Assembly (NCBI GenBank): GCA_022072085.1
Contig: JAJVII010000040.1
Coordinates: 1-60,672, forward strand
DNA: 60,672 bases
DNA from: Phycisphaerae bacterium
GTDB lineage: Bacteria; Planctomycetota; Phycisphaerae; JAJVII01
Direction of reading: 5' to 3'
Part shown: piece by piece, positions 2,024-21,723 of the stretch
How positions within the stretch are numbered: the first letter of the stretch is position 1
Layout: each line of letters starts with the position of its first letter
Translations under genes and position numbers: made by a program
The notes under the pieces: generated by a model
The model's database searches: none
What the model saw: only the letters and a program-made list of their open reading frames with translations
What the model was told of the DNA's origin: nothing

Positions 2024-3442
2024 TCACGCGGCACCCCCTTCCGCCCCGGCCTCGACCAGCGCCGGGGTGTTCTCCGGCCCGACATCGCTCGCCGTGATGC
2101 GCTCAGCCTTCTTGCCGGTAAACTGCTCCCAGCGCTGAACGATCACGTCGCAGTAGAGCGGGTCGAGTTCCATGAGGTAGGCCCGCCGGCCGGTCTGCTC
2201 GCAGCCGATCAAGGTGCTGCCCGATCCGCCGAACAGATCCAGCACGTTCTCGCCACGCCGGGACGAGTACTCGATGGCCCGCGTGGCCAGTTCGACTGGC
2301 TTCTGCGTCAGGTGGACGTAGTCCTGCGGGTTGTCCTTCTTGATGTGCCACAGGTCGGTGGCGTTGTTCGGCCCGAAGAACCGGTGGGCTCCGCCTTCAC
2401 GCCAGCCGTAGAAGCAAATCTCGTAGCAGCCGAGGAAGCTCTTCCGCGTCAGGACCGGCCACATTTTGTCCCACACGATGCCCTGGCTGAAATACAGCTC
2501 GCAGCCCTTGAGCACCGGCGGGTAGTTGCCCAGGTTGGCATAGCCGCCCCAGATGTAGAACGACCCGCCCGGCTCCAGCACGCGGGCGATGTTGCCGAAC
2601 CAGGCGTACAACATCTTGTCGAACTCCTCGTCCGACACGAAGTCGTTGGCCAGAGGCCGGTCCTTGGCCCGCAACTTGTCGTGCGTGGCGATCCCGCTCT
2701 GGGCGCCCGTCGCAACGTCCCTGCCGTGGTGCTTGGACCTCGTCTTCTTCGCTTCCATGCGATGCAGATCGAAGCCCTGGTGGTGGAGCAGGCCCGGCTC
2801 GCCAAACGACGACATGCCTGCGGCGATGGCGTTGTTGCTCCGCGGCTCCACCTTGACGTTGTAGGGCGGATCGGTGTTCACGAGCTGGATGCGGGCGCCG
2901 TCCAGCAGCCGGTCCACGTCGGCCTCGCTGCTGCTGTCGCCGCAGAGCAGCCGGTGGTTGCCCATGATGATCAGGTCGCCACGCTTGGTGGTGGCGGCGT
3001 CGGGCAGTGCCGGGGCCTCGTCCGGGTCGGTCAGGCCGGCCGTGCCCTCAGGCGCCAGCATTGCCGACAGGTCCTCGGCCGAGAAGCCGAGCAGGTCCAG
3101 GTTGAAGTCCATGCCCTGGAGGTCCTTCAGCTCGATCGGCAGCAGGTCCATGTTCCACTCGGCCAGCGTCGCGGTCTGGTTGTCGGCGATGCGGTAGGCC
3201 TTGATCTGCGCGGGCGTCAGGTCCTTGGCCACGTGGACCGGGACCTTCTTGAGCCCCAGCTTGGCCGCCGCCTTCCACCGCGTGTGCCCGACGATGATCA
3301 CCATGTCGGCATCCACCACGATGGGCTGGCGGAACCCGAACTCCCGCAGGCTGGCCGCCACCGACTCGACGGCGGCGTCGTTGATGCGCGGGTTGTTCTC
3401 GTACGGCTTGACCGAATCGATGCTCACGAGCTTGACGTCCAC
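2024..3442 (-). CDS. ParB-like domain / DNA methyltransferase fusion
   Basis: The N-terminal ~120 residues are a ParB/Srx-type domain (KPYENNPR, then GHTRWKAAAKLGLKKVPVHV). The C-terminal part is an amino-methyltransferase with DPPYN near residue 191 (motif IV) and FGGSGST near residue 404 (motif I, SAM binding), so the motif order is the permuted (beta-class) one. Such ParB-methylases are common in phages and modify adenine-N6 or cytosine-N4. The GTG start at 3442 has GGAGGTGA five bases upstream, and the HNH gene ends one base earlier, implying translational coupling. Likely roles are protection of element DNA or regulation. It is not the partition ParB: it lacks that family's HTH and C-terminal dimer domain. 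Confidence 0.9.
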   Translation of the reverse strand: MDVKLVSIDSVKPYENNPRINDAAVESVAASLREFGFRQPIVVDADMVIIVGHTRWKAAAKLGLKKVPVHVAKDLTPAQIKAYRIADNQTATLAEWNMDLLPIELKDLQGMDFNLDLLGFSAEDLSAMLAPEGTAGLTDPDEAPALPDAATTKRGDLIIMGNHRLLCGDSSSEADVDRLLDGARIQLVNTDPPYNVKVEPRSNNAIAAGMSSFGEPGLLHHQGFDLHRMEAKKTRSKHHGRDVATGAQSGIATHDKLRAKDRPLANDFVSDEEFDKMLYAWFGNIARVLEPGGSFYIWGGYANLGNYPPVLKGCELYFSQGIVWDKMWPVLTRKSFLGCYEICFYGWREGGAHRFFGPNNATDLWHIKKDNPQDYVHLTQKPVELATRAIEYSSRRGENVLDLFGGSGSTLIGCEQTGRRAYLMELDPLYCDVIVQRWEQFTGKKAERITASDVGPENTPALVEAGAEGGAA

Positions 3443-3443
3443 G

Positions 3444-3911
3444 TTACTCACCTCCAGGCAGAGAGATTGAATCTGCTGTCGCCGACAGCGACCGTCGCTG
3501 CTGGCGGATTTTCCGTTGGCGGTCACTGCATGCCTGCCGATGGCACGGCTTGCATGCCGAGATGGCCCCGTCGTAGGGGTAGTAGCAGTAGCGGTAGAAC
3601 TCAGTCAGCGGCTTGGTCTGGCCGCACTTGCAGCAGCGCTTGTAGGGGACGCCGTCGCGGGACTCGTATCCTGCGTGAATGTGCCGGTGTTCCGCGGGAG
3701 TCACCAGCTGCAGATTCTCGATCCGGTTATCGCGGTTGTTCCCGTTGACGTGGTGTATGGCCATTCCCTCAGGAATCGGGCCGCGGTTTGCCTCCCATAC
3801 CGCTCGGTGTTCCATGACCAGCCGACCGTTGACGCGGCGGCGTCTCGGCCGTTGACGTTGCCGCTGCCCAAGTCGGTGCGTAACCACTGGCGACCTCCAT
3901 TTCCTGGTCAT
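3444..3911 (-). CDS. HNH endonuclease with zinc finger
   Basis: The HNH core is IHHVNGNNRDNRIENLQLVT (His53-His54 and the Asn pair), followed by EHRHIH around 75-80. A C-terminal zinc-binding region has CCKCG and, about 25 residues later, CKPC. The N-terminus is arginine-rich and basic. I place the start at the ATG whose bases overlap the upstream stop (ATGA); an alternative GTG at 3887 has a better GGAGGT site five bases away. Phage HNH proteins of this size often sit near methylase or terminase genes and nick or cut DNA. The stop is one base before the ParB-methyltransferase start. It might also be a free-standing homing endonuclease. Confidence 0.85.
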   Translation of the reverse strand: MTRKWRSPVVTHRLGQRQRQRPRRRRVNGRLVMEHRAVWEANRGPIPEGMAIHHVNGNNRDNRIENLQLVTPAEHRHIHAGYESRDGVPYKRCCKCGQTKPLTEFYRYCYYPYDGAISACKPCHRQACSDRQRKIRQQRRSLSATADSISLPGGE

Positions 3912-4561
3912 GTTCGGCGCGAAGACAAACAAAGAACTAGCGGCCGGCTGCTCGCCCGGCCCACGGGCGGTTTTTCGGCCAGTAAGGAACCATTCGTCTG
4001 CCACAATGGCAGGCCCGCGACGTTCGCCCCCGTTCGCCCCTGTCGCGTCCGGGCGGGCGCCTTGGCCACGTGCTCGACAGCGGCCGAATCGTTCGCCCGT
4101 GGGCCAACGGGTGGCGTTGGGTGCGAAGGCTCTGTGCTTGCCGCGGACAACGCGGTAGAATGCTCGCCGGTCGGATGCTCCTGCCTATCGCCATGACGCC
4201 CCCCCTCGTCGTGGCAAGCTGGCGTCCGACCTTTTTCATGTACGGCCTGGCCGACTGCGGCGGCGTGGCCTCGCACCACGCTGGGGCTTGTTTTCCCTGC
4301 GCCGCGTGGTGGGAGCGGGGCGGTGACGTACTCGTTGTTGCGCAACGGCCCGCGATACATGGCGCAGTAGAGCCAGTGCTCGGGCTGGTCGCTGCCCAAT
4401 GGGCACGTGTCATATCGCCGGCAGTCACCGCAGCGGCAGAACTTCAGGACGACCACGTCCTGGCCGGCATGGTGCTGGACGACGGGCTGGGGCTGTTCAG
4501 CCGCCGCCGTCGGCCGGTCAGCCTTGGTCGCTGCCGGCGCAGGATGTTTGAATTCGTACAT
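3908..4561 (-). CDS. cysteine-rich small zinc-finger protein
   Basis: The start at 4561 has AGGTGA nearby. Residues about 38-70 carry a cysteine cluster (CRCGDCRRYDTCPLG, then YCAMYRGP) that looks like a metal-binding finger. The rest, to residue 217, is low-complexity, rich in Pro, Ala, His and Arg. No catalytic domain was recognised. The ATGA overlap with the HNH gene suggests co-translation. The C-terminal two-thirds could have arisen by read-through into non-coding GC-rich sequence, because its composition is unlike a folded domain; the N-terminal finger is the well-supported part. Confidence 0.6.
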   Translation of the reverse strand: MYEFKHPAPAATKADRPTAAAEQPQPVVQHHAGQDVVVLKFCRCGDCRRYDTCPLGSDQPEHWLYCAMYRGPLRNNEYVTAPLPPRGAGKTSPSVVRGHAAAVGQAVHEKGRTPACHDEGGRHGDRQEHPTGEHSTALSAASTEPSHPTPPVGPRANDSAAVEHVAKAPARTRQGRTGANVAGLPLWQTNGSLLAEKPPVGRASSRPLVLCLSSRRT

Positions 4562-4585
4562 CTGGTCACCTGCCCTGGTCATCGC

Positions 4586-4784
4586 TGGCACGCGGTGGCA
4601 CGCGATCCACCCGATTGCGCTCTATGCTGCTCAGGCGCGTGCGCGTGTGCGCGCACGCGCGCCTGCGCACATGTGCAAAAGGAGACATCGCGTGCCATCG
4701 CGTGCCAGAAACGTAAGGCTTGATTCATCAATCGCTTACCGATTTCGATATCGCGTGCCACATCGCGTGCCGGAACGCGTGCCA
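4586..4784. repeat. iteron-like repeats, candidate replication origin
   Basis: Seven copies of a 9-11-base word lie in 200 bases without a gene. Two are in one direction (TGGCACGCG at 4586 and TGGCACGCGAT at 4596). Five are inverted relative to these: ATCGCGTGCCA at 4687, 4697 and 4750, a close copy at 4762, and ACGCGTGCCA at 4775. Spacing is 10 bp in the first two groups and 12 bp in the last, about one helix turn. An AT-richer segment (4711-4750) separates the groups, and a Z-DNA-prone tract lies between the inverted sets. The primase-helicase gene ends 31 bases away. This is the layout of iteron origins in plasmids and phages; origin function is inferred. Confidence 0.6.
4635..4676. repeat. 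alternating purine-pyrimidine (Z-DNA-prone) tract
   Basis: Bases 4635-4662 alternate strictly between purine and pyrimidine (mostly GC/GT steps), and after a short break 4664-4676 alternate again. Such tracts flip to Z-DNA under negative supercoiling. It lies inside the candidate origin, between the two groups of iterons. Confidence 0.7.
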
Positions 4785-4814
4785 AGGCCGAAACGACCGT
4801 CTTGGAGGCGGAAA

Positions 4815-7244
4815 TCACCACTTGGCACCCCCCTGCGCGCCCTCTGGCGCAACTGATATTCCCTCGTACCACCGCATCCGAACGCCAGCCAAGCGGGGCT
4901 GTGTGACGCGCAGGCCAGGCATTACGGCCCGCAAATCCCGTCCGAATGTCTGGATCGTGCCCACATGGGTCCGGCCAATGGACTGGCAGTAGTCCCGCCA
5001 GGCGGCGAACAGTTCGTTCATCTCGACGGACTGGCCGTTGCCCACGAGACACCGTTCCCGCACGAACGCACCGACCGGGCTGAACAGGTCCTCCAGGTCG
5101 CCGATCGTGTCCTCGACGCTGGCCGGCTGGACGAACCGCCCACGGGCGTGCAGCCGCTGCCAGCCCTGGAGCGCCCACAGCAGGATGCCGGGCAGCTCGG
5201 CCAGCAGCTTGTTGGTCAACTCGATGTCCTCGCGACCATAGAAGCTCGTGGTGAACCGCAGGACGAGGAATCGGCCGGCGAGCGCCCCGCTGGCGTCGGA
5301 CGCCCCGGGCAACTCGTTGGTCAGGAACATGAACCGCGTGGGCAGCTTCATCGTGACTGATCCGACGTGTTTGCGGTCGATGGTGAGCGTGTCCTCGCCG
5401 CTGATGCACAACAGGCGCTCGACGACGACGGCAATGTCGTCGCCCTTGAACCGGGCGTCCGAGACGATGGCCACGCTCTTGCCGATCAGTGGCTGGAGGC
5501 CGAATGGGCCGGCGAGAGACGATGTGGTCGGGCCCGCGACGTTGCCAGCGCCGACCAGGCGGGTCAGGACGCGCCCGATCGTGCCCTTGCCGCACCGCTT
5601 GGGGCCCAGGAGCAGGAGCATCTTCTGCTGGCTGGTGTCGACGGTCAGGCAGTAGCCGAACCACTCCTGGAGCAGGTCGATGGACTGCTGGTCGTCGGGC
5701 CACAGCTCCTGGAGGAAGGCCAGCCACTTGGCGGGCACGGCCGCGGCCGGGTCGTAGTCGAACTCCAGGGAGTTGATGTTGAACAGGGCCGGCGTCGCCG
5801 GGAAGGTCGTAGCCGTCGGGATGTGCAGGTTCAGCGACCGGCAGGACAGGACGGCCCTGGGGTCCGGCCTGCCCGCGGCGTCGCCCAGCCACGACGGCAG
5901 CGGCATGCTGGCCGGCAGGTGCGTGAGCGTCCGCACCGAGTCCAGCGCCGCGTTGATGCTGGTCGGGTTGGCCGGGAACGGCAGGAGTTCCTGCTCGTGG
6001 GTGCTGCGGTTGTAGACATGGTGGACGGAGTCGTGCAGCCAGGGCTGGAGCAGGTTCTTGACGGTCCCGTCTTCGACTTCGACGTAGCGGTTGCCACGCC
6101 ACTCCATGAGCAGGCCGGCGTAACTGTGCATGGTGCGGCCGTCGGGGTGGGTGCGGAACTCGCGGATGAACGCCTCGGCCGTGGGCAGCGTGCGGCTGGT
6201 GGATAGCACGAGCTTGCCGCTGACCGGGTCCCGCGTGCCCAGGGCGACGGCGGGCACGTCAGCCGGCGACGGCGGCGAGGCGCCGGGGCCGCCCGCGGCA
6301 GCGGCCCGACGCCGACGCTTCTTCGACTGGTACTGCTTGGTGACGAGCTGGAGCGCCTTGGCAATGGTCGCCTGGCCATAGGTCTGCTCACCATGCAGCT
6401 CGTCCCACTTGGGCCGGAACAGCTTGGACTGGCGGAAGAGCCGGTCGAGCTGGACCGGGTCCTTGGTGTAGAAGGCCAGCGTGAAGATGACCGACGAGTC
6501 GGCCTCGCTGGCGCTGTTGAAGTAGTCGTTCCACCGGCCGGCCCACAGCGCGGTGAACTTGGCCCCGTTCTTCTTGCTGCCGGTCGCCAGATTGAGGATC
6601 TCGTCGTCGGTGAGGGTGGCCGGCTCGGCCGGTGCGGGCGGGGTGGCAGACGGTGGCGGGGCCGGCGCCGCCGCGGCAGCCGCCTGCGGCGGGCCGAACA
6701 CCTCGACGTAGAGGGCGTCCAGCTGTCCCTGGCGATCTTCCACGTCGGCGCTGACGCCGTCTAGTCGCTGCCCGGTCACAGTGAAGAACCGGCCGGTGTC
6801 GTAGATTTCCACCTCGCCGTCGTGGTAGCCCTTGCGGCAGCGGTTGCCCGGCTTGCGGCCGCGGATGAAGACCTTCACCCCGCCGCCCGACGGCGAGACC
6901 TCGGTGTAGGAGTCGAGCTGGTCGACGATCTGCCGCCCCCAGGGCTTCAGCTCGCCCGACGCCGGGTCGATGCTGTCGTCCAGGTCCACGCCGCAGAAGC
7001 CGGCTTCGCCCGTGAACACGAACCCGACGCCGGCATACTGGCTGGACGCCTGCCAGGCCGCCATCGCCTGGTCGAACGTCGCCCAGGTGGCCGGATCGGT
7101 CGAGTCCGCCGGCCCGCCCGTCTTGGCGTCCATCGGGCACTTGGTCGGCTTGCCGTCGCGGACGATCACCTTCCAGACCACCCACTGGGGAAGCTGGCGC
7201 AGCGCCGCCGGCACGACCGTAATGTCGAACGGGCGGTCGCTCAC
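4815..7244 (-). CDS. NrS-1-type primase-polymerase / SF3 helicase, 809 aa
   Basis: The GTG start at 7244 has GGAGG six bases upstream and overlaps the RecD-like stop by 4 bases (GTGA). Residues ~15-165 form an archaeo-eukaryotic primase-type domain: metal-binding DLD at 87-89 in GVDLDD, then SPSGGGVKVF and EIYDTGRFFTVTG. Around 205-290 is the helicase-binding domain known from phage NrS-1 polymerase (ADSS..FTLAFYT, then LFRQSKLFRPKWDE). After a proline-rich linker comes a P4/D5-type superfamily 3 helicase, with Walker A GPKRCGKGT (Lys553) and an FLTNELP sensor segment. Known relatives prime and copy DNA de novo and unwind it, so this protein alone could start replication of the element at the adjacent iterons. 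Confidence 0.9.
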   Translation of the reverse strand: MSDRPFDITVVPAALRQLPQWVVWKVIVRDGKPTKCPMDAKTGGPADSTDPATWATFDQAMAAWQASSQYAGVGFVFTGEAGFCGVDLDDSIDPASGELKPWGRQIVDQLDSYTEVSPSGGGVKVFIRGRKPGNRCRKGYHDGEVEIYDTGRFFTVTGQRLDGVSADVEDRQGQLDALYVEVFGPPQAAAAAAPAPPPSATPPAPAEPATLTDDEILNLATGSKKNGAKFTALWAGRWNDYFNSASEADSSVIFTLAFYTKDPVQLDRLFRQSKLFRPKWDELHGEQTYGQATIAKALQLVTKQYQSKKRRRRAAAAGGPGASPPSPADVPAVALGTRDPVSGKLVLSTSRTLPTAEAFIREFRTHPDGRTMHSYAGLLMEWRGNRYVEVEDGTVKNLLQPWLHDSVHHVYNRSTHEQELLPFPANPTSINAALDSVRTLTHLPASMPLPSWLGDAAGRPDPRAVLSCRSLNLHIPTATTFPATPALFNINSLEFDYDPAAAVPAKWLAFLQELWPDDQQSIDLLQEWFGYCLTVDTSQQKMLLLLGPKRCGKGTIGRVLTRLVGAGNVAGPTTSSLAGPFGLQPLIGKSVAIVSDARFKGDDIAVVVERLLCISGEDTLTIDRKHVGSVTMKLPTRFMFLTNELPGASDASGALAGRFLVLRFTTSFYGREDIELTNKLLAELPGILLWALQGWQRLHARGRFVQPASVEDTIGDLEDLFSPVGAFVRERCLVGNGQSVEMNELFAAWRDYCQSIGRTHVGTIQTFGRDLRAVMPGLRVTQPRLAGVRMRWYEGISVAPEGAQGGAKW

Positions 7245-16040: not shown

Positions 16041-17549
16041 ATGGCAACTGTGTTCAGAAAGACCTACACGCAGCACCTGCCCAAAGGCGCGAAGATCGTC
16101 CAGCGGCAGGGCAAGAAGATGGCCCTCTGGCTGGACGCCAAGGGCCGGCCGCACTACGACGACGTGACGGTCGGCCGGAAGGGCAAGCTCAAGATCATCC
16201 GCCACAGCCCGACGTGGACGGCCCAGTACCGCGACGCCGACGGCAACACCGTCTTCGAGGGCACTGGCTGCCGCGACGAGCAGGCCGCCCGGCACGTGTT
16301 GGCCAAGCTGGTCCAACGCGTCGAGCACATCAAGGCCGGCATCATCACGCCGCAGCAGTACCGCATGGCCGACCACGCCGACCGACCGTTGGCCGAGCAT
16401 GTCGAAGATTATCTGGAGCACCTGAAGGCCAAGACGGTCCGCGGCCGCCGCGTCTCGGCCAAGCACCGCGAGAACGTGAAACGCGAACTGACCCGCGTGG
16501 TCGGCGACTGCCGGTTCCGGCGGCTGGGCGATATCACCCGAGATGCGATGGAACGGTGGATGAACGCCCGCGAGGAAGACGGCATGGGCGCCCGCACGCG
16601 GAACACCTACCGCTCGTCCATCGTCGCATTCTGTAACTGGTGCGTCGAGACCGACCGGATGGCGACAAGCCCCCTGGCCAAGCTCTGCGTGGCCGATGAA
16701 CGCGGCGACCGCCGCCGGGCCCGGCGGGCGCTGACCCAGGACGAGGTCGCCCGCCTGCTGACGGCCGCTCGACTCCGCCCGCTGGCGGAGTTCGGCCGCG
16801 AGACCATCCACCGCCCGGCCAAGGATCGCAAAGGTCGGCGGACGTGGACGAAGGCCCCGCTGGTGTTCGACGACCTGGAGGCGGCCGCCGCCCGGGCCCG
16901 GGCCGTGCTGAAAGACAACCCTGAATTCCTGGAAGAGTTGGAGCGGGTCGGCCGCGAGAGAGCGCTGGCCTACCGGATTATGGTGCTGACCGGCCTGCGG
17001 AAGGGCGAACTGGCCAGCCTGACTGCCGGGCAGCTCGAACTCGACGCCCCCAGCCCGTTCGCCGAGCTGCTGGCCAAGGACGAAAAGGCCGGCCGCGGGG
17101 CGAAGATCCCGCTACGGGCCGACCTGGTCGCTGAAATCCGCGAGCACCTGGCAGACAAGCTCGGCTGCCTCCAGACAGACGCCCGCCGCGGCGGTCAGCC
17201 GGTCCCCGTCCGCCTGCCTGCTGCCACGCGGTTGCTCCGCGTGCCTCGGGATTTCGTGCGTATCCTCGACCGCGACCTGGCCGTTGCCGGGATCGCCAAG
17301 ACCGACGACCGCGGCCGCCGGGTCGATATCCATGCCCTCCGCCACACCTTCGGCACGCACCTGAGTCTGGCCGGCGTCGCCCCCCGCGTCGCCCAGGCCG
17401 CCATGCGGCACTCGACGCTTGAACTGACCATGAACGTCTACACCGACCCGCAACTGCTGGATGTGGCAGGCGCGATTGACTCACTACCGGCGTTCAGTAG
17501 AGCACTTACCCACACGCGCTCAGCACGAATTGCGCCAACTCGCGCATGA
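16041..17549 (+). CDS. tyrosine recombinase (phage-type integrase), 502 aa
   Basis: The start is fixed by GGAGAG just upstream. The N-terminal ~110 residues form an arm-binding-like basic domain, ~120-215 the SAM-like core-binding domain, and ~235-495 the catalytic domain. Catalytic residues are visible: Arg320 in TGLRKGEL, His431 and Arg434 in HALRHTFGTHL, His457 in MRHSTLELT and nucleophile Tyr467 in NVYTD. The protein is longer than the usual 380-400 residues because of inserts around 245-300 and 350-400. It catalyses integration and excision of the element; the gene lies at the element's right end, next to the truncated hsdM, as expected for an attachment site beside int. Confidence 0.95.
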   Translation: MATVFRKTYTQHLPKGAKIVQRQGKKMALWLDAKGRPHYDDVTVGRKGKLKIIRHSPTWTAQYRDADGNTVFEGTGCRDEQAARHVLAKLVQRVEHIKAGIITPQQYRMADHADRPLAEHVEDYLEHLKAKTVRGRRVSAKHRENVKRELTRVVGDCRFRRLGDITRDAMERWMNAREEDGMGARTRNTYRSSIVAFCNWCVETDRMATSPLAKLCVADERGDRRRARRALTQDEVARLLTAARLRPLAEFGRETIHRPAKDRKGRRTWTKAPLVFDDLEAAAARARAVLKDNPEFLEELERVGRERALAYRIMVLTGLRKGELASLTAGQLELDAPSPFAELLAKDEKAGRGAKIPLRADLVAEIREHLADKLGCLQTDARRGGQPVPVRLPAATRLLRVPRDFVRILDRDLAVAGIAKTDDRGRRVDIHALRHTFGTHLSLAGVAPRVAQAAMRHSTLELTMNVYTDPQLLDVAGAIDSLPAFSRALTHTRSARIAPTRA

Positions 17550-17720: not shown

Positions 17721-20114
17721 CTAGCGGGTCCGCACAATGATCGGACTGCGAACGGCGACAGGTTGGATCGACAATCTCGTCATGCTCGCCGCGATGGACA
17801 GCGATTGCATCGCTACCTGGGGATCGATCGGCGACTCGCCGAGATCGACGAGTTCCGCGGCAAATGCCACACGCTGACGGGGGTCGAAGTCCATTCCCGG
17901 CGGATACGGGGCGACTTCCTCGTAGGATAGCTCGACAAGCCACATGTCGCCCTCGGCAGCCCGTTCCTTGCCGGGCTTGTAGCGGCTGAGCCTGTACTCT
18001 CGGCAGATTGTGGGAAAGCTGTCGTGACCGCCATGGGGCGCTCTTATTCCGCGAACATCCGGCCCAGGATGAAGAACCGGCGTGATGTGCCGACAAGCCC
18101 ATGTAGCCTGCCCGACTTCACTGACAGGCGGGTCCGCGCAAATCACAATTCGCAGTACTGGCTGCTGTGCTTCGTCCAGCCACGCGACTGGAATCGGTAG
18201 CTGGACCCGCACCTTGTCGGCCGGTGAGTCGATGTATCCTTGCCATATGATCACCGCTGAACCATTTGCAGGAGTGACCAAGCGGCCAACGCTTGCTCGG
18301 CCATGCCCAAGCGTCCGCTCAGCGAGGTCGGCGATTTGTCTGTCATTGACGGGCCGCGTCGCTGTCAGCGTCAGAAACGCTCGTGCTGTCACCGCAAAGG
18401 GCTGCGTGCCTGGCATACAGTATTTCTGAAGTTCGGCCAACGTGATTGCCGACTCGCGGGCTAAAATCGGGGCGGCGTGAGACGTGCCGATGCGATCCTC
18501 GGGCAGACCGGCCCCCGAGAATCCCCATACGCCCATGCCATGCACCGGACGATAGGCGGTGTCAGTATTTCCGCCCGGCGCACAGAACGACGGAATTGGG
18601 GCTGCGCACAAACCTGGGCCGATCCGTGTAAATGGGCTTGGCCAGCCTACAGTTCGCACCAAACCATCGGCCGACGGTCGCGAGACATACGCTCCACAAA
18701 TGAGCGTGTTGAACCCGCATGCCCACGGCCCAAGGGCCCAGCGGGGGTCAGCGTGGTGACCAGGGTACAACGGGTTGGGGACGACACCCGGTTGGGAATT
18801 ACCAGCGGCAACAACAACGATAACATCATTAGCGAAGATGAAGTTATCCAAGTCCTGTAGCAACAGCCGCTTTTCGTGTTTGACCACAGCGTCAAACGCA
18901 TCAAGAGGCCGCGAATCGCCGAAACTCATGTTGAAGACGCGGACATCCGGTGCAGCGCCACGTACGCCGCGCACTGCATCCATCACAATCTTGTCGTTTA
19001 CGCGGTCATTCTGGCCGGACCCATCAGGGTACTCGGCAACCAAAGCGTCATAGAATGTGCAACGGCCTATTGAACTGTTCAGGTCATCGTGAGTGCTGTG
19101 GTCACCAAAGACAATCCGCGACGCCACGAAGGAGCCATGATCTCCCACCGGGCTTGGGGGAGCGTCTTGCGGCACAAACTGGCCTCGACGATACGGGCCA
19201 AGTTGTTTGTGGTTCGCGGGGATACCTAGATCCACAACAGCTACGCATGGAAGCTCGTGGATATTTGGCGGCGGGGGCTGCGGCTGAGCCGCAGATACAG
19301 AACCAGCAAGTGCTCGGACGGCTTTCCCTGCGGCGATTGAGTAGAGGGGAGAGTGGATCGCCTGAACGGAGAAGAAATCCTTGGCGATGCCACGAATTGA
19401 GCGTTGGCTGGCCTCCCCCCTGAACCAATGTCGCCCCGAGAAGTCCGTCCCGGTCCCGGTTAACTTCTCTCCTTCACGCTGCACAAGCAAATCGGCAATT
19501 GCACGAAGGACGGTATCTGCTTCAACGCGCGTCAGGACGGGCTGAAGTTCGATCACCACATCGGTAGTCTCGTTCGACCGAATTCCCTTTAGCCAGTCCG
19601 CGTCAACACGGAGTTGAAGTGGAACCGCGTCGAATGAATCAATCGTCACCCAACGCGATTGTTCGCGGAGGCCAAGCGAGTCGAGAGAAGTCGCACGCTG
19701 CACTAGTTGATCAATACGTTCCTTTTCGGCATGAACGACCGCTTGTCCGATGTCAGTCACTTGTAGCAGGTCGAGGCCCAGTCGGTCAAAGACCCGGCCA
19801 TGTGCCCCGCCGTATTCCGTCTTCTCCTTGAAGGTTCCACTGGGAGCTTTCTTCTTGTTAGTAGATTCCTTCTCCACATCGGCCACGGGCAGCGCCAACA
19901 GGAAATAGCGCCGGTCTTTCAGCGGGTCGTGCGACGCTTCTATGGTTCGCACAGCCCCGTTGAGGCTCCGGCTCAGTTGCCTTGCTTTGGCCGCCCAAGA
20001 AATCCCAGCGTAATGCGGAAGTCGGCCTCCACCGTCCCGCTCCACGGGAGAAAGCTCGTGGCCCTCGTTCAAGAAGAACGTGCGCGGAGAGGGGGATTGT
20101 TCATGTTGAGCCAT
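17721..20114 (-). CDS. subtilisin-like serine protease, IetS-like
   Basis: This S8-family protease has 797 residues. The catalytic triad is Asp295 in VAVVDLGIP, His326 in GDHGSFVAS and Ser545 in GTSHAAP, with the oxyanion Asn in AAGNSQPG. About 280 residues precede the protease domain and about 200 follow it, with no signal peptide, so it is cytoplasmic. The base composition is less GC-extreme than the chromosomal genes, which suggests transfer. An AAA+ ATPase gene ends 4 bases before its start. This ATPase-subtilisin pair is the layout of IetAS, first described as a plasmid stability pair and later listed as an anti-phage system. The assignment is from domain pairing and order only. Confidence 0.88.
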   Translation of the reverse strand: MAQHEQSPSPRTFFLNEGHELSPVERDGGGRLPHYAGISWAAKARQLSRSLNGAVRTIEASHDPLKDRRYFLLALPVADVEKESTNKKKAPSGTFKEKTEYGGAHGRVFDRLGLDLLQVTDIGQAVVHAEKERIDQLVQRATSLDSLGLREQSRWVTIDSFDAVPLQLRVDADWLKGIRSNETTDVVIELQPVLTRVEADTVLRAIADLLVQREGEKLTGTGTDFSGRHWFRGEASQRSIRGIAKDFFSVQAIHSPLYSIAAGKAVRALAGSVSAAQPQPPPPNIHELPCVAVVDLGIPANHKQLGPYRRGQFVPQDAPPSPVGDHGSFVASRIVFGDHSTHDDLNSSIGRCTFYDALVAEYPDGSGQNDRVNDKIVMDAVRGVRGAAPDVRVFNMSFGDSRPLDAFDAVVKHEKRLLLQDLDNFIFANDVIVVVAAGNSQPGVVPNPLYPGHHADPRWALGPWACGFNTLICGAYVSRPSADGLVRTVGWPSPFTRIGPGLCAAPIPSFCAPGGNTDTAYRPVHGMGVWGFSGAGLPEDRIGTSHAAPILARESAITLAELQKYCMPGTQPFAVTARAFLTLTATRPVNDRQIADLAERTLGHGRASVGRLVTPANGSAVIIWQGYIDSPADKVRVQLPIPVAWLDEAQQPVLRIVICADPPVSEVGQATWACRHITPVLHPGPDVRGIRAPHGGHDSFPTICREYRLSRYKPGKERAAEGDMWLVELSYEEVAPYPPGMDFDPRQRVAFAAELVDLGESPIDPQVAMQSLSIAASMTRLSIQPVAVRSPIIVRTR

Positions 20115-20118
20115 GCGG

Positions 20119-21033
20119 TTACCCCACCGTTCGCAAAGCCTGCCGTCTAGCTTCCCCTATAACGATGCCTTCAGCATGCGCAAAACTGTCTGCCGCTGCT
20201 GTGCGACGAAGCACCGAGACGGGAAGCCTTATGCCTTTGGCCCGTGCGAGCCGTTTCGCATAACTGGTCAAGACTTTCCTGGAAGGTGCTTTGAAAAGCA
20301 ACGTCAGATCAAACCTGCGCCAAAGCGCATCGTCTAGGTGCTTAGCGAGATTTGAAGTGCCGATGATCAGTCCAGCTGGCCGCGAGTGCTCAAGCTCCTG
20401 CATCAGCGCAATGACTATCCGATCCAGTTCCCCAACGTCTAGCGGGCTGCCGCGCTTCTTGCCGAGAGCATCTAGTTCGTCCAAGAGCAGGACGCACGGG
20501 GTCGTCTCGGTGAAATGGAACAACTGGCGGAGATGGATTGCAGTCTGGCCGAGATACGCGCCAATGATGGCGTCAAATCGCACAACGAACGTCGGAATTC
20601 CGAGTTCGCGACCGATGGCCCGAGCTGAGAGGCTCTTGCCACAACCGGGCGGGCCGTGAAAAAGCAGTTTTGAGCGGGGTTGGATGCCCCGCTGCTGGAG
20701 CCGCTCGCGATGTCGCCATTCAAGGATTACGGCCTGTAGCTCTTGCCGGGCCTTGGTTGTCAAGACGACATCCTGCAACTGCACATCGGGTGCTAGACGC
20801 ACGAGGCCAGTGGAAAGAAAACCGGTGCTCCCGGGGAACGGTCCCGGCGGACCTTCGGCCTGTGTCAGAGCCCGCCCATTGGGATGCAGCGCCCCACGCA
20901 GGAGGCGAGCGGCGGTCGTGTGACCCTGCCGCTGTTCTGCTTTGCAGATTTCCGTGGCGATTGCGGAGGCGCTGGCGAGGTCCTCGGCAGCGATTGCCCG
21001 GAAAAGTCCTGCTAGTTTGCGAACAGTCGCCAT
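20119..21033 (-). CDS. AAA+ ATPase, IetA-like
   Basis: The N-terminal ~100 residues are helical. The AAA+ module follows: Walker A FHGPPGCGKSLSARAIG (Lys133), Walker B CVLLLDELDALGKKRG, sensor 1 GTSNLAKHLDDALWRRFD with the arginine finger, and a small C-terminal lid domain. I use Met at 21033 rather than the upstream TTG at 21084, which lacks a ribosome site. In IetAS-type pairs the ATPase is thought to sense or remodel a trigger and control the protease. It is the promoter-side gene of a leftward operon, ATPase - protease - hsdM. Confidence 0.86.
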   Translation of the reverse strand: MATVRKLAGLFRAIAAEDLASASAIATEICKAEQRQGHTTAARLLRGALHPNGRALTQAEGPPGPFPGSTGFLSTGLVRLAPDVQLQDVVLTTKARQELQAVILEWRHRERLQQRGIQPRSKLLFHGPPGCGKSLSARAIGRELGIPTFVVRFDAIIGAYLGQTAIHLRQLFHFTETTPCVLLLDELDALGKKRGSPLDVGELDRIVIALMQELEHSRPAGLIIGTSNLAKHLDDALWRRFDLTLLFKAPSRKVLTSYAKRLARAKGIRLPVSVLRRTAAADSFAHAEGIVIGEARRQALRTVG

Positions 21034-21624
21034 CCTGGGCCGATCTCTTATCAGCGCTCGTTCGGCTGTCGTCCTGGCCGACAAGGTCTCAGGACCGTGA
21101 TGTCAGTGGCAGCCGCCGCTAAGTGCCGATGGCGGGCATTATACGTGCGGTTGAGCAAGAATCCAATCCGCCTCTCCGTGTGTGCCCGGCTGTTCTGCGC
21201 CGCCGGTCCAGCCAGCCCAGGATGCACGGTCTGGCGCTCTGCTCGTCCACGATCGTGCCGCGACCCTCGACGGTCACGCGATACTCGGCATCAGGTGACT
21301 GGCCAACCGGGCATGATCCCCCACCCGGCTGCCCACGCGGCCAAACAGGCTCAGGCAGGCGGGGTCGCCCATCGGCACGGCCAGCGGCCTGTCGGCCAGG
21401 CAGGACGCCCCGGGTTGCCGCCTCGCCCTTCGCCTCGCCCCTCGCCTTGCACCTGTACTTGCACTAGTACTTGCACTTCCTACAGTCCATCGTAGACGCT
21501 ATAGACGCTGGTGGCACAGAATCGGCCCTGGCGGGCGGGGGGCGGGGTCGGCCGGAGGGGGCGCAAGTCGCGACGGGGGTACGCGATAGACGCCGGTGTC
21601 CTCAATAGACGCCGGCGTCATGAA
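21034..21624. other. 590-base gap with a possible gene relic and short repeats
   Basis: On the minus strand a frame from ATG 21490 to TAG 21119 is open except for one in-frame TAG after eight codons (MDCRKCKY). Behind it are CKYRC and a segment EYRVTVEGRGTIVDEQSARP that looks protein-like. The stop falls inside a direct repeat (GTGCAAGTAC twice, then GTGCAAGG). It may be a decayed gene or chance in GC-rich DNA. The segment also carries TAGACGC repeats near the tRNA. I see no other gene. Confidence 0.3.
21493..21619. repeat. TAGACGCY repeats
   Basis: The word TAGACGC(T/C) occurs at about 21493, 21502, 21587 and 21606, the last three extended to ATAGACGCYGGYG. The final copy contains the 12-base perfect palindrome GACGCCGGCGTC (21608-21619), just 5 bases from the tRNA 3' end. 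It could be processing or regulatory sites, or the footprint of a mobile element's tRNA end. Confidence 0.4.
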
Positions 21625-21696
<72 letters not shown>

Positions 21697-21723
21697 TCGA
21701 TCGGGTGCACCGCACCCGTCTGC

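What the first reader, a model, noticed from the sequence alone, without database searches (positions are those of the whole stretch)
4586..4784. Iteron array with a Z-DNA tract: candidate origin of the element
Seven copies of (A)TCGCGTGCCA in two opposed groups, with helical-turn spacing of 10 and 12 bp, flank a 42-base alternating purine-pyrimidine tract and an AT-rich stretch, 31 bases past a primase-polymerase/helicase gene. Iteron origins are well known, but an origin tied to an NrS-1-type replicase would be new to me.
Basis: partly seen in the sequence, partly recalled or inferred. Interest (0 to 1): 0.78.

Follow-up and report, generated by a model that had tools for sequence, protein, structure and literature searches.

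The report
Prophage replication origin read by its replicase
The repeat cluster is very probably the start site for copying a virus-like element built into a planctomycete chromosome: related elements carry the same layout at the same place with a different repeat word, and in the closer relatives the word changes together with a small loop of the copying enzyme's DNA-binding tail.

Summary
Seven copies of CGCGTGCC lie in 4586-4784 in two opposed groups, between the stop of an NrS-1-like primase-polymerase/SF3-helicase (4815-7244, minus) and the next gene (start 4561, minus). They flank the two longest alternating purine-pyrimidine runs of the window (28 and 14 nt).

Across 82 replicase homologues, 59 have the same two-fold layout right after the replicase stop (tandem 9-10 bp word pair, about 85 bp, inverted pair), against 0 of 1640 shuffles and 0 of 820 control windows. 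The word itself differs (TGGCACGCG, ACTGTCGCG, ACCTGCGCG, TGTACCGCG and others). In 42 replicases with an N5+CGCG word, the variable half tracks residues 780-791 of the replicase, the wing of its C-terminal winged helix, and not the PrimPol or most of the helicase. That domain matches RFX (which reads bases with its wing) and the phage P4 origin-binding domain.

Best reading: an iteron origin bound by the replicase itself, equivalent to P4 crr or a SaPI ori, on a prophage cut by the contig end. The Z-DNA tract occurs in about half of the relatives and is not essential. A new variant of a known kind. Replication and binding are inferred; the wing-word link replicated only partly in an independent set.

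The parts
4815..7244 (-). Replicase: NrS-1-like PrimPol + helix-bundle domain + SF3 helicase + C-terminal winged helix (809 aa)
   Evidence: Pfam NrS1-1_pol-like_HBD 1.3e-22, DUF5906 1.2e-13, Prim-Pol 1.8e-4 (below cut-off); phrog_1829 8e-132; PDB NrS-1 primase 6a9w 1.6e-36
4845..5099 (-). C-terminal winged-helix domain of the replicase (residues 716-800), putative origin-binding domain
   Evidence: AF2 of residues 705-809 pLDDT 78; RFX1-DBD 1dp7 Z 11.2, P4 OBD 1ka8 Z 8.8; Pfam Pox_D5 and RFX_DNA_binding
4872..4907 (-). Wing of the winged helix (residues 780-791, V-T-Q-P-R...), the segment that tracks the repeat word
4586..4595 (-). Iteron copy 1 (CCGCGTGCCA, 1 mismatch)
4596..4605 (-). Iteron copy 2 (TCGCGTGCCA)
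4688..4697 (+). Iteron copy 3 (TCGCGTGCCA)
4698..4707 (+). Iteron copy 4 (TCGCGTGCCA)
4751..4760 (+). Iteron copy 5 (TCGCGTGCCA)
4763..4772 (+). Iteron copy 6 (TCGCGTGCCG)
4775..4784 (+). Iteron copy 7 (ACGCGTGCCA)
4585..4708 (.). Core dyad: inverted tandem pairs (22-nt arms 4585-4606 and 4687-4708, 80 nt between); the part conserved in relatives
4635..4677 (.). Alternating purine-pyrimidine tract, 28 + 14 nt with one break; can also form a hairpin
4707..4751 (.). AT-rich stretch (62% AT in a 66% GC element), candidate melting site
4610..4619 (-). Inner element CGCAATCGGG; relatives often have CAATRGG here, next to the iterons, independent of the word
   Evidence: CAATRGG in 12 of 64 against 0.3 expected; inverted CCATTGC elements on both sides
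3908..4561 (-). Next gene downstream (MYEF..., unknown function); its start bounds the intergenic origin region 4562-4814
   Evidence: read; no Pfam or PHROG match when scanned as 3908-4591
7241..13792 (-). Replication/recombination module of the same element: RecD-like helicase, ERCC4 nuclease, DUF669/SSB-like, Sak4-like, PD-(D/E)XK exonuclease
16041..17549 (+). Tyrosine integrase of the element
   Evidence: Pfam Phage_integrase 1e-12

Best explanation
The array is the cis-acting replication origin of an integrated temperate-phage-like element. Subunits of the element's own replicase (PrimPol, SF3 helicase, RFX/P4-type winged helix) bind the tandem words through the C-terminal winged helix, with its wing reading the variable half of the word. 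The two opposed groups then load two helicase rings facing each other; the AT-rich and alternating stretch between and beside them opens, the ring unwinds it and the PrimPol domain primes. Shown here: the array, its conserved two-fold layout and position in relatives, the diversification of the word, and co-variation of word and wing in the near family. Inferred: physical binding, hexamer loading, melting and priming.
For: (1) Array real and far above chance. (2) Layout statistic of 44 or more right after the replicase stop in 59 of 82 homologues, 0 of 1640 shuffles, 0 of 820 control windows, and in 38 of 90 more distant IMG/VR homologues. (3) Word differs between relatives; in 42 replicases its variable half tracks residues 780-791 after stratifying by helicase identity (top columns 782, 783, 780, 785); partial r 0.62 for residues 781-805 against about 0 for PrimPol. 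On trees the word needs 18 changes with 19 wing residues, 23 with the whole helicase, and at least 21 with any of 25 helicase segments of equal length. (4) The domain is RFX- and P4-OBD-like in fold and sequence, and RFX1 reads bases with its wing (PMC4333399). (5) Same position and arrangement as P4 crr. (6) Paired switches: L099 against L100/L101 (helicase 79-81% identical) QPR/TGGCA against YPR, RLR/TGGTC; the same word and QPR in replicases only 42-48% identical, such as L027 and L037.
Against: No binding or replication data. In the independent set B the crude wing-word correlation is not significant (partial r 0.035), and nearest-neighbour prediction by wing is hardly better than by helicase (6.2 against 6.0 of 9). 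About a quarter of the homologues show no array at the stop; one has it 1.7 kb away (L018). Set A is phylogenetically structured. Several lytic phages with a distant homologue lack an array.
Confidence: 0.85

Rival explanations
1. Stem-loop (cruciform) origin of the pRN1 kind: the opposed copies matter because the arms pair with each other, and the word is just stem sequence.
For: 22-nt arms 95% complementary; the 211-nt region folds better than all 200 shuffles (z -5.3); the pRN1 origin is described as a 21-nt stem and 58-nt loop 3' of orf904, and a compensatory stem mutant restored replication (PMC4234260). Stem register slightly preferred over crossed register in relatives.
Against: The preference is tiny (16.4 against 16.3 of 18, p about 0.04-0.06); three of the seven window copies have no partner; extra unpaired copies occur in many relatives; the word tracks a DNA-reading loop of the replicase. 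The pRN1 arms are themselves tandem 9-bp repeats, so pRN1 may be the same thing.
Confidence: 0.15
2. Transcriptional operator: the array is bound by the replicase or another regulator to control the genes downstream (4561 leftwards), not to start replication.
For: The array lies directly upstream of a co-oriented gene, and iterons often double as operators (general knowledge).
Against: Position is conserved relative to the replicase stop; two-fold layout with a roughly 85-bp spacer is unusual for an operator; no sigma-70-like promoter found in 4300-5100 (weak evidence in this phylum); equivalent regions in P4, SaPIs and pRN1 are origins.
Confidence: 0.12
3. Partition (parS-like) site used by the ParB_N-methyltransferase protein (2024-3526).
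For: ParB_N domain nearby in the same module.
Against: The ParB_N domain is fused to a methyltransferase; no ParA or ParB-HTH found among the proteins scanned; the word co-varies with the replicase.
Confidence: 0.04
4. Chance or low-complexity artefact of a GC-rich genome.
For: GC-rich alternating words such as GCGTGC are common in such genomes (two-mismatch matches are no more frequent than in shuffles).
Against: Shuffles and control windows from the same loci never reach the score; the layout is kept with AT-rich or unrelated words (L042, L046, L117).
Confidence: 0.01

Closest known systems
Satellite phage P4: alpha primase-helicase with crr/ori type-1 iterons
   Same: Iterons immediately 3' of the initiator gene; tandem pair (9-bp step) and inverted copies; primase and SF3 helicase in one protein with a C-terminal winged helix; predicted fold similar to the solved P4 origin-binding domain (Z 8.8)
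   Different: P4 alpha has a Toprim-type primase (PMC4234260) rather than an AEP PrimPol; P4 also needs a distant ori1, and no second cluster was seen here; word and spacer differ
SaPI Rep and SCCmec Cch2 with downstream iterons
   Same: Initiator helicase whose C-terminal domain binds short repeats just 3' of its gene, thought to bind as two hexamers (PMC7581432)
   Different: Separate primase; Gram-positive islands; no wing-word relation known to us
pRN1/pRN2 plasmids (ORF904 and stem-loop origin)
   Same: PrimPol-SF3-winged-helix replicase; tested origin about 54 bp 3' of the gene; arms that on inspection are tandem 9-bp repeats inverted across 58 nt
   Different: Interpreted as a structural stem-loop; tail fold reported as different from P4-OBD/RFX (PMC10516667); archaeal
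NrS-1 phage polymerase
   Same: N-terminal PrimPol and helix-bundle domain related by sequence
   Different: NrS-1 uses an 8-nt template site with two copies in the genome (PMC7102993); TTTGGTTA is absent from this window; tail domain reported as a different fold

Membership tests
P4/SaPI-type iteron origin (initiator helicase binding repeats 3' of its own gene) | Cluster of short repeats directly 3' of the initiator gene, tandem and inverted | tested here: met
   P4 crr shown for comparison
P4/SaPI-type iteron origin (initiator helicase binding repeats 3' of its own gene) | Initiator with SF3 helicase and C-terminal winged-helix origin-binding domain | tested here: met
   DUF5906 and phrog primase/helicase families; winged helix matching P4 OBD 1ka8 Z 8.8, rmsd 2.7 over 80 residues
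P4/SaPI-type iteron origin (initiator helicase binding repeats 3' of its own gene) | Initiator binds the repeats; repeats required for replication | not testable with these tools
   only indirect support from co-variation
P4/SaPI-type iteron origin (initiator helicase binding repeats 3' of its own gene) | Second, distant origin region (P4 ori1) | tested here: inconclusive
   only one isolated exact copy elsewhere in the window (13056), but the element is cut at window position 1
NrS-1-type PrimPol replicase | PrimPol and NrS-1 helix-bundle domain | tested here: met
   PF22763 1.3e-22; PDB 6a9w and 6k9a about 1.5e-36
NrS-1-type PrimPol replicase | 8-nt recognition site TTTGGTTA in the element | tested here: not met
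   0 matches in the window; the site may differ between family members
RFX-type winged helix | Fold and sequence similarity to the RFX DNA-binding domain | tested here: met
   1dp7 Z 11.2, rmsd 1.9, 76 of 76 residues; Pfam RFX_DNA_binding in 11 of 12 members, best 6.5e-5, below the gathering cut-off for the window protein; RFX5 E 0.0034 by profile
RFX-type winged helix | Base reading by the wing in the major groove | tested here: inconclusive
   word tracks wing residues in set A; set B correlation not significant, though the QPR rule holds in set B at p = 0.003
pRN1-type stem-loop origin | Arms that must pair with each other | tested here: inconclusive
   weak preference for stem register

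The most novel reading that the evidence does not exclude
Prophage and satellite replicases of the PrimPol-SF3 class carry a readable origin code: a dozen residues of the RFX-type wing specify the variable half of a 9-10-bp iteron, so the two diversify together and make closely related replicons mutually blind. The long-puzzling pRN1 'stem-loop' origins would then be inverted tandem iterons of the same kind.
Probability: 0.5. Interest if true: 0.8.

Novelty: new variant of a known kind. Interest (0 to 1): 0.62.

Why it matters
[quoted passage not shown] Here nearly a hundred matched replicase-origin pairs give the words directly and point to the loop that should read them, so the question can be tested by gel shift and wing swaps. 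If the code holds, origins and compatibility groups of uncultured phages and plasmids could be predicted from sequence.

Tried and rejected
Whole-replicase AlphaFold model: poor (pLDDT 52), so only the winged helix was modelled alone. Nearest-neighbour prediction of the word from the wing in the independent set: little better than from the helicase. Rank-based partial correlation over all words: weak in set A (0.17) and not significant in set B (0.035); most of those words are unrelated to each other and the distant proteins align poorly. Some set B motif rules (QVR/QHR, RRRATGN) were widened after seeing set B and are not counted as independent tests; QPR and RRRGTG were fixed beforehand. RRRGTG holds 4 of 4, but those replicases are close to the training set. 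Z-DNA as a required part: rejected, absent in about half. sigma-70 promoter or terminator in the region: none found. A single DnaA-box-like match (TTTTGCACA, 4672-4680, the only one in the window) was not pursued; it overlaps an inner element that in relatives reads CATTGCACGCG. GC skew shows no switch at the array.

Full report
The observation. The window holds seven copies of CGCGTGCC in 4586-4784: two on the minus strand (4586, 4596) and five on the plus strand (4688, 4698, 4751, 4763, 4775), with steps of 10, 10, 12 and 12 bp. The exact 10-mer TCGCGTGCCA is expected 0.41 times in the whole window and occurs four times here and once elsewhere (13056). In the 5.49-Mb genome ATCGCGTGCCA occurs 11 times, 4 of them here. 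The first two pairs make a 22-nt inverted repeat. Between them lie alternating purine-pyrimidine runs of 28 and 14 nt, the two longest in the window, and at 4707-4751 an AT-rich stretch. The array fills the gap between the stop of 4815-7244 and the likely start (4561) of the next gene on the same strand.

The neighbour. 4815-7244 encodes 809 residues: an NrS-1-like PrimPol and helix-bundle domain (Pfam PF22763 1.3e-22; PDB NrS-1 entries about 1e-36), an SF3 helicase (DUF5906) and a C-terminal tail. Around it are a RecD-like helicase, ERCC4 nuclease, SSB-like, Sak4-like and exonuclease genes, a ParB_N-methyltransferase, an HNH gene and a tyrosine integrase. The window is contig C40 from its first base, so the element is cut on the left. 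In relatives L019 and L022 a terminase large subunit gene lies several kilobases downstream of the replicase and array, past an HNH gene (L019) or a methyltransferase gene (L022), so the element is most likely a prophage or a derivative of one. Named relatives are planctomycete MAGs and IMG/VR viral contigs.

The array in relatives. 82 non-redundant homologues with downstream sequence were collected. A simple count of the best 9-mer beats all 40 dinucleotide shuffles in 48 of 82. A statistic for the layout itself (tandem pair, 45-140 bp, inverted tandem pair) reaches 44 or more in 59 of 82, in 0 of 1640 shuffles and in 0 of 820 random windows of the same loci. In a further 90 more distant IMG/VR homologues it is reached in 38. 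Over the 97 positives the step is 10 or 9 bp in nearly all cases and the spacer has median 85 bp. Several named phages and plasmids outside the planctomycetes also have arrays after their primase/helicase gene (Lactobacillus CR28, Streptomyces virginiae plasmid, Streptococcus satellite Javan723), while lytic phages such as 9NA do not.

The word changes, the layout does not. Near relatives use N5+CGCG with N5 = TGGCA (window), TGGAA, TGTCA, TGGTC, TGTAC, AGTAC, ACCGT, ACTGT, ACCTG, ACCAG, ACCAA, ACAAG, ACCGA and others; more distant ones use unrelated words. Constant inner elements (CCATTGC on either side, CAATRGG beside the right group) recur independently of the word. The alternating tract is present as a run of 12 nt or more in 30 of 64.

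Which part of the replicase goes with the word. In 42 replicases of the N5+CGCG group, pairs with the same word were compared with pairs with different words within bins of helicase identity. The best columns are 782, 783, 780 and 785 of the window protein, and the best 15-residue window starts at 780 (mean 0.30; median window -0.02, 95th percentile 0.06). Partial correlation of word distance with segment distance, given helicase identity, is 0.62 for 781-805, at most 0.23 before residue 741, and about 0 for the PrimPol. Parsimony gives 18 word changes on a tree of the 19 wing residues, 23 on the 385-residue helicase tree, 23 on the winged helix without the wing, and 21 or more on 25 random 19-residue helicase segments. 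Natural swaps fit: L099 and L100/L101 are 79-81% identical in the helicase but differ in wing (QPR against YPR, RLR) and word (TGGCA against TGGTC), and replicases only 42-48% identical share QPR and TGGCA.

The domain. AlphaFold2 of residues 705-809 (pLDDT 78) gives a winged helix in which 782-791 is the loop between strands 779-781 and 792-798. The best PDB match is the RFX1 DNA-binding domain on its X-box (1dp7: Z 11.2, rmsd 1.9, 76 of 76); the African swine fever virus PrimPol tail and the P4 origin-binding domain follow. By sequence the aligned tails match Pox_D5 (12 of 12) and RFX_DNA_binding (11 of 12), weakly for the window protein itself, and RFX5 by profile (E 0.0034). RFX1 is the known exception among winged helices that reads bases with its wing (PMC4333399, PMC2533330), which fits the co-variation. 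PMC10516667 reports that the tails of NrS-1 polymerase and pRN1 ORF904 differ from this fold.

Independent check and its limits. In 91 replicases from later IMG/VR scans, the pre-set rule QPR -> TGGCACGC holds in 3 of 7 against 2 of 84 without QPR (p = 0.003), and RRRGTG -> ACTGTCGC in 4 of 4 against 0 of 87, though the latter are close relatives of the training set. A general correlation over all words is not significant in that set, and nearest-neighbour prediction is hardly better than from the helicase. The wing-word link is therefore well supported in the near family and unproven beyond it.

Comparison with known origins. P4 has its crr repeats directly 3' of alpha, as a tandem pair and inverted copies. 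SaPI and SCCmec origins lie just downstream of their initiator helicase genes and are bound by its C-terminal domain (PMC7581432). The pRN1 origin, shown by deletion to suffice with its operon, is described as a 21-nt stem with a 58-nt loop (PMC4234260); its arms TTATGTCCATAGTGTCCAACT are a 9-bp tandem pair, and pRN2 is alike, so it shares the anatomy seen here. What appears new, within the papers that could be searched, is such an origin tied to an NrS-1-type PrimPol with an RFX/P4-type tail, the very wide diversification of its word, and the pointer to the wing as the reading element.

Verdict. The array is most probably the replicase-bound origin of a prophage-type element (0.85). It is a new variant of a known kind.

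Noticed in passing
window 17721-21084: Subtilase plus AAA ATPase pair matching the IetAS defence system (PADLOC IetS 5e-32, IetA 2e-60), between the integrase and a tRNA-Gly: probable cargo of the element.
   Followed up: partly
window 21453-21697: tRNA-Gly(CCC) at 21624-21697 (-); its 3' half plus adjacent sequence, 214 bp in all, recurs at 94% in contig C34 near 52.6 kb: possible attachment site of this or a related element.
   Followed up: partly
window 10404-10479: ARAGORN calls a tRNA with a four-base anticodon (cata) inside the replication module.
   Followed up: no
L045 (G037:C1 near 874.8 kb): A remnant that keeps only the winged-helix tail and three or more TGGCACGC copies beside an integrase; the rest of the replicase is gone.
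   Followed up: partly
L319, L320 (pRN1, pRN2): The arms of the published stem-loop origins are themselves tandem 9-bp repeats, so the 'stem' may be inverted initiator sites.
   Followed up: partly
L018: No array at the replicase stop, but ACCTGCGCG repeats 1.7-1.9 kb downstream, the word used by other replicases with a similar wing: origin displaced by an insertion.
   Followed up: partly
L016, L026: PrimPol half like the window's but no matching helicase half, with their own arrays (AACCCCGCA, AACCTCGCC): the PrimPol and initiator halves are exchanged as modules.
   Followed up: no
window 4672-4680: The only DnaA-box-like TTWTNCACA match in the window lies in the middle of the array region; it overlaps a constant inner element of the family.
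   Followed up: partly
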